This document shows, one piece after another, positions 34,509-40,898 of a stretch of DNA of 44,955 nt. The position numbers were made by a program, and so were the translations under genes. Source of the DNA: Cyanobacteria bacterium QS_4_48_99 (GTDB lineage: Bacteria > Cyanobacteriota > Cyanobacteriia > Cyanobacteriales > Rubidibacteraceae); assembly GCA_003021505.1 (NCBI GenBank), contig PXPT01000053.1:1-44955 (forward strand), given 5' to 3'. The first letter of the stretch is position 1, and each line of letters begins with the position of its first letter. The notes beneath the pieces were generated by a model. It searched no databases and was not told the origin of the DNA. It worked only from the letters and a program-made list of their open reading frames with translations.

Positions 34509-35489
34509 ATGACTTCTGTTGTCCAACAACCAACTGTAACTACCGCAGCGGAACCGACGCGCCTTGTGCAGACTTGGGCGCTAAGAAAAGTTTACCGGAG
34601 TGGCTTCTGGCTCAACCAAAAAGTAGAATCGCTTCATAGCTGTTCCCTCTCGGTGTATCAGGGAGAAACTTTTGGCTTGCTCGGTCCCAATGGAGCAGGA
34701 AAAACCACGCTGCTGAAAATCCTGCTAGGCACTGTCCGTCCTACTTCTGGGCGTGGCGTTTTGCTGGGTCGTCCTGTGGGTGATCGCGCTGTTAAACAAC
34801 GAATTGGCTATCTCCCAGAAAATCCCTACCTTTACGATTATCTCACTGCTTGGGAGTTTTTGCAGTTTATTGCTGGGCTATTTGAAATTCCCCAATCGGT
34901 GCAGCGGCGACGCATCCCTCAAATGCTGGAGTTAGTGGGGTTAGCCCGCTCCACTGCTCGTAAAAAGCAACTTCGTAAGTATTCTAAAGGGATGTTGCAA
35001 CGGGTGGGTATGGCGCAGGCACTAATTAATGACCCAGAATTGGTCTTTTTGGATGAGCCTATGTCGGGACTTGACCCCATCGGACGTTACCAAATGCGAG
35101 AGATTATCCTTTCCCTGAAAGAACAGGGCAAGACAATTTTCTTTAACTCCCACGTTTTGGGGGATGTGGAACAAATCTGCGATCGCATTGCTATCCTGGC
35201 TCAAGGTGAGTTGATTTGCACAGGCTCTCTCGAACAACTCCTCGGTACAGCAGACACTTACCAAGTGGTTGGAAAAGGGGGCACCCATGAGGTTCTCCAA
35301 AGCTGGGTTAGTAACCTTTCTTTCCAACGTGAGTGCTGGTACGGTCAATTGCGAGGGGAACCGCAGGCGTTTATCAACAGCCTTCGCTCGATGGACGCAC
35401 ATCTAATTAGAATGAATATTTCCCGTCCTTCCCTAGAAGATTTTTTTCTACAGCAACTTCAAAAGCGCGGAATAGAGCCAAGTTACTGA
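34509..35489 (+). CDS. ABC transporter ATP-binding protein (ABC-2 exporter type)
   Basis: The 326-residue ATPase has Walker A GPNGAGKTTLL (about 59-69), the Q-loop region IGYLPENPYLYDYLTAWEFL, a degenerate signature YSKGMLQRVGMAQAL in place of LSGGQ, Walker B ELVFLDEPMSGLDP and the switch His in FFNSHVLGDVEQICDRIAIL. Order and C-terminal extension fit ABC-2 exporters. The expected permease gene does not follow; the DUF262/HNH region lies there instead. A decayed second copy of its 3' end is found at 37181-37258. Confidence 0.92.
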   Translation: MTSVVQQPTVTTAAEPTRLVQTWALRKVYRSGFWLNQKVESLHSCSLSVYQGETFGLLGPNGAGKTTLLKILLGTVRPTSGRGVLLGRPVGDRAVKQRIGYLPENPYLYDYLTAWEFLQFIAGLFEIPQSVQRRRIPQMLELVGLARSTARKKQLRKYSKGMLQRVGMAQALINDPELVFLDEPMSGLDPIGRYQMREIILSLKEQGKTIFFNSHVLGDVEQICDRIAILAQGELICTGSLEQLLGTADTYQVVGKGGTHEVLQSWVSNLSFQRECWYGQLRGEPQAFINSLRSMDAHLIRMNISRPSLEDFFLQQLQKRGIEPSY

Positions 35490-35640
35490 GTAGGATAACA
35501 CTTGTGTGAGGAGCAGGAAAGGCAGGAGAAACATAGGGAATTCTTCCCATAAACTGACCCTAACTCCTAATCTTACAAGGAGCCGTAGTTTAACTATTGA
35601 AATAGAGTTACTCCGTTTGTAAAAAAAAATCAAAATAAAA

Positions 35641-36885
35641 ATGACACAAAAAAATAAAATTCCACTTGTTAAAGATGCAACCAGATCCCAGTCAGAAAGT
35701 ATTCAAACAGTTGTTAGTAGGCTCCAGAATGGAGAAATATATGTTCCCGATTACCAGAGAGGCTCCGATCAGTGGAACTTGCGAAAAAAAGTCACTTTTA
35801 ATTGAGTCTACTTTGAATAATTTAACTATTCCTGCTTTCTTTTTGTGTGAAGACGAAAATGGTAATTCTATGGTAATTCTGAGGTCATTGATGGGCAGCA
35901 AAGATTAACAACTATTCGGGAATATGCCGAAGACAATTTTAAAATAAGCGATAGTGACGATATTGAATATTTGCTCCCGGAAGCGGTTCAGTATAGGGGC
36001 AAAAAAATTAGTGAATTACCTAATAATTTGCAAAAAGTATTCAACAAATATCCTTTATCTATTATTTTTCTCCCAGCAAGCATGTCATTAAGCATTAAGC
36101 TTGAAGTATTTAGAAGAATTAATGAAGGTGGAACCCCTCTTACGGGTCAGGATATTCGTTTGGCTTATTATAGTCAATCTAAAAGTGTCTATTTCATCCG
36201 TCTTGCTGGAATTCACAGTGATAGCGAGTCTGCACAACGGATGATCGAGGAAGGCAAAAACCGAAAAGGAATTGCCCATCCTTGGGATGAATATTCTCAA
36301 GCAAGGGAAGAGTGGGACGAATGGTGGAGGGGCAAAAGTATAGCCAAAGGGCAAACCCCTTCGCTAATGTTTCTTTGGTACTTAATATGCCTAGAACGAA
36401 ATCGACTTGGTGATATGTTGAATGCCCAGAGTGGCACCAATCATCTAAAAATTAATTTTAGGGGTACAATAGAAGAATCGTTAGATATTTATTGCGCTCA
36501 ACTCCAATACCAAGAGATTGAGGCTGATTCTATAGATATACTGTCAAATATTGATACTATATCCAATAATTATTTTCCATCATTTGCGAAGTGGATATAT
36601 AAAATATTGTCAAGCGGCATTCCAGGTATCAGCGTAGATAAGTATAAGCAGTTAGCTTTGTTTATTGCAGCTGCTGTGGAAATGGATTTGCCAATGGATG
36701 ATTTATCCGATGAGCAGTGGAATTGGATAGGTGAATTTATTCGTAGACCTCGGAAAACTGGCCGAGAGATACTTAGTGATAGTGATGATTATCCAGAACC
36801 TAAAGGACGATGGACTACGGCAAGAGGTCAAAAGCAACAATGCGAGAAAACAATAGAAATTGTTCGAAATATAATGGATTTATGA
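35641..36885 (+). pseudogene. DUF262 (GmrSD-type) nuclease gene with two frame lesions
   Basis: ATG 35641 opens MTQKNKIPLVKDATRSQSES and reads VPDYQRGSDQWNLRKK, then meets TGA because a run of A near 35784 has one A too many; the next frame continues KKSLLIESTLNNLTIPAFFL. Near 35859-35880 an 11-bp tandem duplication of ATGGTAATTCT shifts it again, back into the original frame, which reads the DUF262 signature VIDGQQRLTTIREYA and continues to NIRNIMDL-type end at 36885. The lesions (+1 and +11) sum to +12, so the frame before and after agree, but stop codons lie between. DUF262 proteins are nuclease/NTPase components of GmrSD-like anti-phage restriction. Repaired length is about 410 residues. 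Base use is clearly AT-richer than in flanking genes. Confidence 0.85.
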
Positions 36886-37166
36886 CGAATAAAATCCCTC
36901 AAAAATTAGAAAAATGTAATCCTAGGCAAAGATTTTTTCCTTTAACTTGGAAAGAAGCTTACTTTAGGATGAACATGAGTAATCAGTTAGAAGGATATGT
37001 ATGTCCAAGGTGTAAGGAAATTTTTTGTGGAAATAAAGGCTTTAAGCAACTCAAATGCGACCATATTTATCCTTTCTCTAAGGGAGGATTGACAGTGTGG
37101 GAAAACCTTCAGCTTCTTTGCAAAAAGTGTAACCGTGAAAAATCGAGTAATATAAATTGTTTCTAA
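36882..37166 (+). CDS. Small HNH endonuclease
   Basis: The ATG at 36882 overlaps the DUF262 stop as ATGA, so the two are translationally coupled. The 94-residue product starts MTNKIPQKLEKCNPRQRFFP and ends with a compact HNH domain: zinc ligands CPRC and CKKC, KCDHIYPFSKGG with the catalytic His, and WENLQLLCKKCNREKS with the conserved Asn. The frame is intact. The pairing implies that the HNH protein supplies a nuclease activity to the DUF262 component, as DUF1524 does in GmrSD fusions; this is inferred. Confidence 0.9.
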   Translation: MTNKIPQKLEKCNPRQRFFPLTWKEAYFRMNMSNQLEGYVCPRCKEIFCGNKGFKQLKCDHIYPFSKGGLTVWENLQLLCKKCNREKSSNINCF

Positions 37167-37180
37167 TAAAAGCAAAATGG

Positions 37181-37258
37181 TGAGTGCTGGTACGGTCAAT
37201 TGCAAGGAGAACCGCAAGCATTTATCGCCAGCCTCCGCGGCATAGAACCTAGTTGCCC
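37181..37258 (+). pseudogene. Remnant copy of the ABC ATPase 3' end
   Basis: The stretch reads GECWYGQLQGEPQAFIASLR followed by GIEPSC. It corresponds to two parts of the ATPase at 34509-35489: ECWYGQLRGEPQAFINSLR (near 35332-35390) and the terminal RGIEPSY (near 35466-35486). The intervening residues (about SMDAH to LQQLQK) are deleted. The first block is about 85 percent identical over some 65 bases by eye. It lies between the HNH gene and mtnA. Confidence 0.75.
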
Positions 37259-37302: not shown

Positions 37303-38361
37303 ATGGTCTCCCCTACAACGATTTATCCGGTCATTTGGCAAGAAGATAGGGTTTTACTCCTCGACCAAACCCAACTGCCAGCCGAAGCAACACTTGTGGA
37401 AATCACTCGCTGTGAGGATATGGCACGAGCGATTCAAAACATGATGGTTCGAGGCGCACCTGCCATTGGCGTTGCAGCAGCTTACGGGATTTACCTAGGG
37501 GCGCGAGAAATCCAGACGCAAGAGCGCGAAGCGTTTTTAAGTCAACTCGAAGAGATTGCCCAGATGCTGCGGCAGACTCGCCCTACGGCAGTAAATTTGT
37601 TTTGGGCGATTGGGCGGATGCTCAAAACAGCCTATGAAACGCTCGGCTCGATTGAGGAAATTAAATCCAATTTAGTTCAAACGGCTCACAATATCCAGAC
37701 AGAAGATTTACAAACCTGTCAGAAAATCGGCGACAACGGCTTATCTATTTTACCCGCTGAACCTGCCCAGCTTTCGCTTCTCACTCACTGTAATACCGGG
37801 GCACTTGCTACCGCAGGTTATGGCACTGCCTTGGGTGTGATTCGCTCTGCGCTGCGAGAAGGGCATCTGGCAAGAGTATACATCGATGAGACTCGCCCTC
37901 GCTTACAGGGGGCAAAATTGACTGCCTGGGAGTGTGTCCAAGACGGCATACTAGCCACGGTGATTACTGACAGCATGGCAGCCCACTGCATGCAACAGGG
38001 CATGATTGATGCAGTGGTAGTTGGGGCTGACCGTATTGCTGCCAACGGAGATACAGCCAACAAAATTGGAACTTATACCCTAGCAGTCGTTGCCCAAGCA
38101 CACGAAGTTCCTTTCTTTGTTGCAGCTCCCCTCTCCACTGTTGACTTCGATTTGCCCAACAGCAGCACTATCCCCATCGAAGAGCGAGACCCCTCAGAAA
38201 TTTATCAAGTGGGAGAAACTATGCTGTGTCCCGAGGGAGTGGCGTTCTACAACCCCGCGTTCGATGTCACGCCAGCGGCGTTAATTAGTGCGATTATCAC
38301 CGAGCGGGGTGCGGTTAAACCTAGCGAGTTGGAACAGTTTCACTCGCAGCAGATGGTTTAG
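37303..38361 (+). CDS. mtnA: S-methyl-5-thioribose-1-phosphate isomerase
   Basis: MtnA isomerises methylthioribose-1-phosphate to the ribulose form in methionine salvage. From ATG 37303 the product is 352 residues, [20 protein letters not shown], with [38 protein letters not shown], the catalytic Cys in that block, and [20 protein letters not shown] with the catalytic Asp. The longer frame from 37279 would enter remnant sequence. Its 3' end overlaps the converging reductase gene by 41 nt. No other methionine salvage gene is adjacent. Confidence 0.95.
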
Positions 38362-40507: not shown

Positions 40508-40582
40508 GTCGGGTAAGGAGAAGATGTCGCTATTTTCCCCTCCCCTCAGAACCGGAGGTGCGACTTTCAGCACATCCGGCTC
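40508..40582 (-). ncRNA. Group II intron 3' tail (domains V and VI), isolated
   Basis: On the minus strand, 40582-40549 is a 34-nt sequence with the layout of group II domain V: GAGCCGGA pairs with TCCGGTTC (one G-U pair at the AGC triad) around a GAAA tetraloop; the upper stem is imperfect. It is followed by a GGGGAGGGG...TCTCCTTACCC hairpin like domain VI, ending ...CCGAC at 40508, which fits the AY 3' boundary. No reverse transcriptase and no complete domain I lie upstream within 320 nt, so only the tail remains. The match is to my memory of the domain V consensus. Confidence 0.75.
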
Positions 40583-40751
40583 AAGCAAAGCATATCCTAC
40601 CTCTACCTGGAGAGAACCTTGGGATAACCCCTCAACTGCTTACGTTTACGCGAGATCGCGTAAATCCACGACTGAGTGGTTTAGTAACGACAGCTACACC
40701 TTTTTGATTTTAACCGAGTGGCGATCGCACTTTCTTTGCGTCCTTTGTTAC

Positions 40752-40824
40752 GGACAGCTTAAGGTGCCGAATTCAGTTCGGCACTCGACCCCTCCCTTTA
40801 AGAACCCCGTCGGCACCCGTGTCC
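40752..40824. repeat. Dispersed stem-forming repeat, copy B
   Basis: GGACA (40752-40756), bulge GCTTAA (40757-40762) and GGTGCCGA (40763-40770) pair with TCGGCACC (40810-40817) and TGTCC (40820-40824). The left arm can also pair locally with TCGGCAC at 40777-40783, an alternative hairpin similar to that of copy A. CTTTAAGAACCCCG precedes the right arm, as in copy C. The remaining spacer to cobN (40825-40898) shows nothing else. Confidence 0.7.
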
Positions 40825-40898
40825 TGGCCTTGGCGGTTCATTCCTTCCCCTAAAGTTGCTATCTTGACAAGGGCACCAACATTACAACTATATTCCCC

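What the first reader, a model, noticed from the sequence alone, without database searches (positions are those of the whole stretch)
37181..37258. Decayed duplicate of the ABC ATPase 3' end bracketing the defence-like module
The DUF262/HNH region is flanked on the left by the intact ATPase and on the right by an internally deleted copy of that gene's last part (GECWYGQLQGEPQAFIASLR joined to GIEPSC). This is the footprint expected if the module entered by recombination that duplicated or replaced the gene end, or if it replaced most of a tandem ATPase paralogue. The permease normally expected next to such an ATPase is also missing.
Basis: partly seen in the sequence, partly recalled or inferred. 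Interest (0 to 1): 0.55.

Follow-up and report, generated by a model that had tools for sequence, protein, structure and literature searches.

The report
Recombination scar beside decayed defence genes
A short leftover piece of a transporter-ATPase gene sits to the right of a decaying two-gene restriction-like cassette in a cyanobacterium, which is most simply an ordinary scar from recombination with a related strain's DNA rather than a new system.

Summary
Window 37180-37256 is a degenerate second copy of the 3' end of the ABC ATPase gene (34509-35489): 59 nt at 88% identity, then 18 nt of the gene end, joined across an 81-bp in-frame deletion. It starts 13 nt after the HNH stop and ends 46 nt before the likely mtnA start. 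The copies differ at 11 of 75 sites but in only 3 residues (neutral-drift P about 0.001-0.01), so most divergence arose while both were coding; duplication at insertion followed by decay is unlikely. The ATPase is single-copy in 346 of the 348 order genomes that have it, and no old tandem pair was found, which disfavours a paralogue. Best reading: recombination with a diverged allele from a close relative brought in the AT-rich DUF262+HNH cassette and left the tail of the replaced allele beside mtnA. DUF262 is itself broken twice. The missing-permease claim fails: relatives rarely have one there. No relative examined has ATPase next to mtnA, so the empty site cannot be reconstructed. The scar is ordinary; the cassette, a split GmrSD-like pair, also occurs in 12 of 387 other genomes of the order.

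The parts
34509..35489 (+). Intact ABC ATPase (326 aa), holding the left copy of the repeat
   Evidence: PF00005 E 6.7e-29; orthologue at E<=1e-100 in 348 of 388 order genomes, single in 346
35329..35387 (+). Left copy of the 59-nt repeat, inside the ATPase 3' region
35388..35468 (+). 81 nt (27 codons) of the ATPase that the right copy lacks, in frame; CGC occurs at both edges
35641..36885 (+). DUF262 (GmrSD_N) gene, broken by two frame breaks (in a 7-A run at 35784-35790, and at an 11-bp tandem repeat 35859-35880)
   Evidence: frames; the pieces each match intact relatives; PF03235 on the C part E 1.7e-5, on an intact relative E 1.3e-26
36882..37166 (+). HNH endonuclease, 94 aa, intact, overlapping the DUF262 stop
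   Evidence: PF01844 E 1.4e-12; 49-70% identical to HNH sequence beside DUF262 elsewhere
37180..37256 (+). Right copy: remnant of a diverged ATPase 3' end with the 81-bp deletion
37303..38361 (+). mtnA (S-methyl-5-thioribose-1-phosphate isomerase); start at ATG 37303 inferred from where homologues begin to match
   Evidence: TIGR00512 E 5.4e-140; homologue match ranges

Best explanation
The 37180-37256 sequence is the leftover 3' end of a second, diverged allele of the ATPase. Most likely the chromosome once ran ATPase - mtnA. DNA from a close relative carrying its own ATPase followed by the AT-rich DUF262+HNH cassette then recombined in: homologous pairing at or upstream of the ATPase anchored one end, and the other end joined illegitimately inside the resident ATPase 3' region, just after the HNH gene. 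That left one complete ATPase, the cassette, and the tail of the displaced allele beside mtnA. The tail lost 81 bp and the DUF262 gene broke, in unknown order. Shown: the repeat, the deletion, the composition change, the coding-type divergence, the broken DUF262, and that no relative examined has an old linked ATPase pair. Inferred: a close-relative donor, one-sided homology, the order of events, and which copy is resident.
For: Repeat and deletion. The cassette has 36.5% GC against 48.5% for the rest of the window, below the lowest other 1526-nt stretch (41.9%) (profile). The copies differ at 11 of 75 aligned sites, 7 of them third positions, with 3 residue changes; random substitution gives so few with P 0.00075 or 0.00095-0.0098 across transition biases, either copy as parent, stop-bearing draws kept or left out. 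At the two residues that differ inside the 59-nt block, the right copy's Q and A look commoner among relatives than the left copy's R and N (by eye). Both tails share residues that no listed relative combines (by eye), so they look like each other's nearest kin. ATPase single-copy in 346 of 348 genomes. No second tail match in 98 of 99 other genomes, three of which had no match at all. The left ATPase stands beside the same-family genomes (SH-aLRT 87), as trpS does (80), so no distant donor is needed. A published parallel exists: displaced 3' gene ends left downstream of inserted modules, ascribed to homology-facilitated illegitimate recombination (PMC5361080, passages read).
Against: No congener was found, so neither the empty site nor a donor is seen. 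ATPase and mtnA are not adjacent in any of 109 relative loci, though only 54 hold 3 kb or more downstream of the ATPase, so an ancestral ATPase-mtnA neighbourhood is inferred from the remnant alone. The divergence test rests on 75 nt. Tree supports (87, 80) are weak. The polarity rests on two residues. No homology was detected beyond the two gene ends (P 0.75), so a shared 3' context of the two alleles is not shown. Illegitimate recombination of this kind is described as rare (PMC5361080).
Confidence: 0.55

Rival explanations
1. Two tandem ATPase paralogues existed in this lineage; the cassette inserted into the second and most of that copy was deleted.
For: Fits the coding-type divergence and the gene order. 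Two of 348 genomes do have two copies.
Against: In those two, one pair lies on different contigs and the other is a 100% identical recent partial duplication next to ORFs that read like group II intron proteins. No old linked pair in 348 genomes.
Confidence: 0.2
2. The insertion event itself duplicated the ATPase 3' end (repair or transposition-like), and the right copy has decayed since.
For: Fewest events; insertions with flanking duplications are common (general knowledge).
Against: 11 differences with only 3 residue changes is not what a decaying copy shows (P about 0.001-0.01). The right copy looks the more conserved at both changed residues of the 59-nt block. In 11 other loci of the cassette with both flanks held, no gene-tail-like repeat lies at the edges.
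Confidence: 0.12
3. The right copy is an attachment-type remnant: an integrative element entered the gene end and restored it, leaving the old end on the far side; its integrase has since gone.
For: Geometry matches; the first 24 nt of the two copies are identical while the rest differs (P 0.012 for 24 of 78 sites free of differences), as a short core would give.
Against: No integrase-sized ORF between the copies; the cassette elsewhere lacks such flanks.
Confidence: 0.05
4. Assembly artefact in a 196-contig draft.
For: Draft genome; no reads available.
Against: The junction at 37180 joins cassette to ATPase sequence without shared bases on its left side, so a misjoin through the 24-nt identity would not create it; contamination is given as 0 and completeness 99.9.
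Confidence: 0.05

Closest known systems
Orphan 3' ends and immunity genes left by homology-facilitated illegitimate recombination in Vibrio T6SS and Rhs loci (PMC5361080, passages read)
   Same: One side anchored by homology, new module inserted, 3' end of the displaced gene left downstream of it
   Different: Here the anchor would be a single-copy transporter ATPase and the cargo a restriction-like pair; seen once, not as an array; the anchor side is not shown
GmrSD family of modification-dependent restriction enzymes (DUF262 + DUF1524; PMC12707154, passages read)
   Same: DUF262/GmrSD_N protein paired with a His-metal type nuclease
   Different: The nuclease is a separate 94-aa PF01844 HNH protein rather than DUF1524; DUF262 is broken here
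PADLOC models NsnA (PDLC03877) and REase_II (PDLC03418)
   Same: NsnA matches an intact DUF262 relative (E 1.9e-45); PDLC03418 matches DUF262 near its start and the HNH protein at its end
   Different: PDLC03418 looks like one fused protein; here there are two genes. What NsnA is was not found in papers

Membership tests
Scar of homology-facilitated illegitimate recombination | One end joined in homologous sequence, the other without homology, remnant of the resident allele kept | tested here: inconclusive
   Remnant and sharp right junction are present; the homologous left crossover cannot be located without a congener
Scar of homology-facilitated illegitimate recombination | The two copies diverged as separate coding alleles | tested here: met
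   11 differences, 3 residue changes, P about 0.001-0.01; does not tell alleles from paralogues
Integrative element at a gene 3' end | Integrase gene between the two gene ends | tested here: not met
   The ORF list of the interval shows DUF262 pieces, HNH and ORFs of 118 aa or less; the small ORFs were not searched for families
GmrSD | DUF262 N-terminal domain | tested here: met
   PF03235 over its cut-off on an intact relative (94.4 bits against 33.2); below the cut-off on the window's C part alone (25.5)
GmrSD | DUF1524 (GmrSD_C) nuclease domain | tested here: not met
   The partner is PF01844 HNH; no GmrSD_C match
GmrSD | Restriction of modified DNA | not testable with these tools
   Needs a plaque or cleavage assay

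The most novel reading that the evidence does not exclude
The DUF262+HNH pair travels as an integrase-free cassette that enters by homology to single-copy host genes, and the gene-tail repeat it leaves makes its loss costly, because recombination between the repeats would leave the ATPase with the remnant's shortened tail.
Probability: 0.05. Interest if true: 0.4.

Novelty: new member of a known kind. Interest (0 to 1): 0.17.

Why it matters
It records how a defence-type cassette without any recombinase gene can enter a chromosome, and points to exchange with a close relative. For annotation, the 59-codon open frame at the remnant is not a gene and the DUF262 gene is a pseudogene in this genome. 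The two-gene DUF262+HNH cassette, present in 12 of 387 other genomes of the order and on a Desulfohalobium plasmid, is the more useful lead.

Tried and rejected
Missing permease: rejected as an anomaly. Of 104 relative loci with a downstream neighbour recorded, 2 have a co-directional ORF within 200 nt with at least four predicted membrane spans; of 101 with an upstream neighbour, none (a simple hydropathy count, not a family search). Homology beyond the gene ends: none found. Third copy in the genome: none. A general link of the cassette with flanking repeats: of 12 fetched loci, one had too little flank; of the other 11, L140 has 44- and 38-nt 84% repeats at -815/+125, L139 a 25-nt one at -1037/+2027, L133 several 1.9 kb or further out on the left, L143 an 18-nt inverted one, and 7 none. 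Distant donor of the left ATPase: not supported by the trees. RNA family at the scar: none at the gathering score. Promoter in the remnant: no plus-strand match. Paper searches: DUF262 + HNH + cyanobacteria gave 3 papers (of which I read passages of one); NsnA + anti-phage gave none; homology-facilitated illegitimate recombination gave 49, 10 listed (passages of one read).

Weak points of my own counts: the 109 ATPase loci mix two collections and hold some genomes more than once (for instance L011 and L039, L012 and L041 look like the same contigs); they were not made non-redundant. The listings were cut, so adjacency in the 388 genomes was compared by eye on the listed rows only; the nearest pairs seen were G012 (about 4.6 kb apart, divergent) and G179 (about 20 kb). 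Pieces of DUF262 N and HNH were cut one base out of frame, and the DUF262 C piece was in the wrong frame; I used the C-part rows and the N, middle and HNH rows.

Full report
What is there. Window 34509-35489 encodes an intact ABC ATPase of 326 aa. At 37180-37238 lies a 59-nt copy of 35329-35387 at 88% identity (E 3.6e-16), followed by 18 nt that match the last six codons of the gene (35469-35486). The 81 nt between are missing from the right copy and present in the relatives listed. The right copy reads [25 protein letters not shown]; it has TAA TAA in frame just upstream and lacks the ATPase stop. It begins 13 nt after the stop of the HNH gene and ends 46 nt before the likely ATG of mtnA (37303).

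What lies between. From about 35490 to 37179 the sequence is AT-rich: 36.5% GC over 35641-37166 against 48.5% for the rest of the window; the lowest other stretch of the same length has 41.9%. It holds a DUF262 gene whose frame is broken at two places, in a 7-A run at 35784-35790 and at an 11-bp tandem repeat at 35859-35880, and an intact 94-aa HNH gene (PF01844). The DUF262 pieces each match intact relatives.

Origin of the two copies. The copies differ at 11 of 75 aligned coding sites, 8 of them transitions; 7 are third positions, and 3 of 25 residues differ. Random substitution on either copy gives 3 or fewer residue changes with P 0.00095-0.0098 over a range of transition biases, stop-bearing draws kept or left out (0.00075). 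Most of the divergence therefore arose in coding sequence. The right copy's two residues inside the 59-nt block look commoner among relatives than the left copy's, yet the two tails look nearer to each other than to any relative listed (both by eye). That points to two alleles or paralogues split at roughly genus level (inference).

Alleles or paralogues. At E<=1e-100 the ATPase is found in 348 of 388 genomes of the order, once in 346. The exceptions are G126, where the two genes are on different contigs, and G364, where 1076 nt are repeated at 100% identity beside ORFs that read like group II intron proteins (the intron reading is by eye). In a search of 100 genomes with the 59-aa tail, 97 had a match; two matches occurred only in the window's genome and, weakly (E 0.006), in G096. 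An old linked pair was thus not seen, and replacement of one allele by another is the simpler reading. In trees of 30 rows each, the left ATPase and trpS both stand beside the same-family genomes (SH-aLRT 87 and 80), so nothing suggests that the ATPase comes from a distant group.

The interval in relatives. None of 109 relative ATPase loci has an mtnA match on the stretch held; 94 hold 1 kb or more downstream, 54 hold 3 kb, 38 hold 8 kb. mtnA itself has no match at E<=1e-100 in 7 of the 8 other same-family genomes. A permease is not a regular neighbour of this ATPase: 2 of 104 loci downstream, 0 of 101 upstream.

The cassette. DUF262 relatives (E<=1e-20) occur in 12 of 387 other genomes of the order, and all 12 have an HNH match beside it, partial in two. 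In five (G153, G159, G249, G263, G313) the DUF262 match has an internal stop, is split or is truncated; G151 runs off its contig. An intact relative matches GmrSD_N above its cut-off and the PADLOC model NsnA (E 1.9e-45). PADLOC's PDLC03418, a type II restriction enzyme model of 372 positions, matches DUF262 at its start and the HNH protein at its end. The same two genes stand side by side on plasmid pDRET01 of Desulfohalobium retbaense. The nuclease is not DUF1524, so the pair is not filed as GmrSD; it probably works in a similar way, with DUF262 as the sensing and NTP-binding part and HNH as the cutter (inference from the family as described in PMC12707154, passages read). In the window the broken DUF262 makes activity unlikely.

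Mechanism. Homology-facilitated illegitimate recombination explains a complete anchor gene on one side, new genes, and a displaced 3' end on the other. The same explanation has been proposed for displaced genes and orphan 3' regions in Vibrio T6SS and Rhs loci (PMC5361080, passages read). The left crossover and the donor are not visible here. I put this at 0.55, a tandem paralogue at 0.20, duplication at insertion at 0.12, an attachment-type remnant at 0.05 and an assembly error at 0.05.

Verdict. A genuine, well-bounded scar of a known kind with little wider interest.

Noticed in passing
window 35641-36885: DUF262 gene is a pseudogene here: two frame breaks, one at an 11-bp tandem repeat (35859-35880), while the neighbouring HNH gene is intact.
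   Followed up: yes
window 40508-40584 (-): Group II intron 3' end (RF00029, 52.6 bits) about 29 nt upstream of the trpS start, with under 400 nt before cobN on the other side, so no room for a full intron; one other match in the genome, on C172.
   Followed up: partly
window 40721-40850: Stretch between trpS and cobN with 14 partial matches elsewhere in the genome (72-97% identity), so probably a dispersed short repeat.
   Followed up: no
L150 3964-5039 and 6466-7541: In genome G364 the same ATPase is duplicated in part at 100% identity next to ORFs that read like group II intron proteins.
   Followed up: partly
window 37303-38361: mtnA is present here but has no match at E<=1e-100 in 7 of 8 other same-family genomes: either lost there or gained here.
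   Followed up: no
L183 2504-3996: Plasmid pDRET01 of Desulfohalobium retbaense carries the same DUF262+HNH gene pair.
   Followed up: partly
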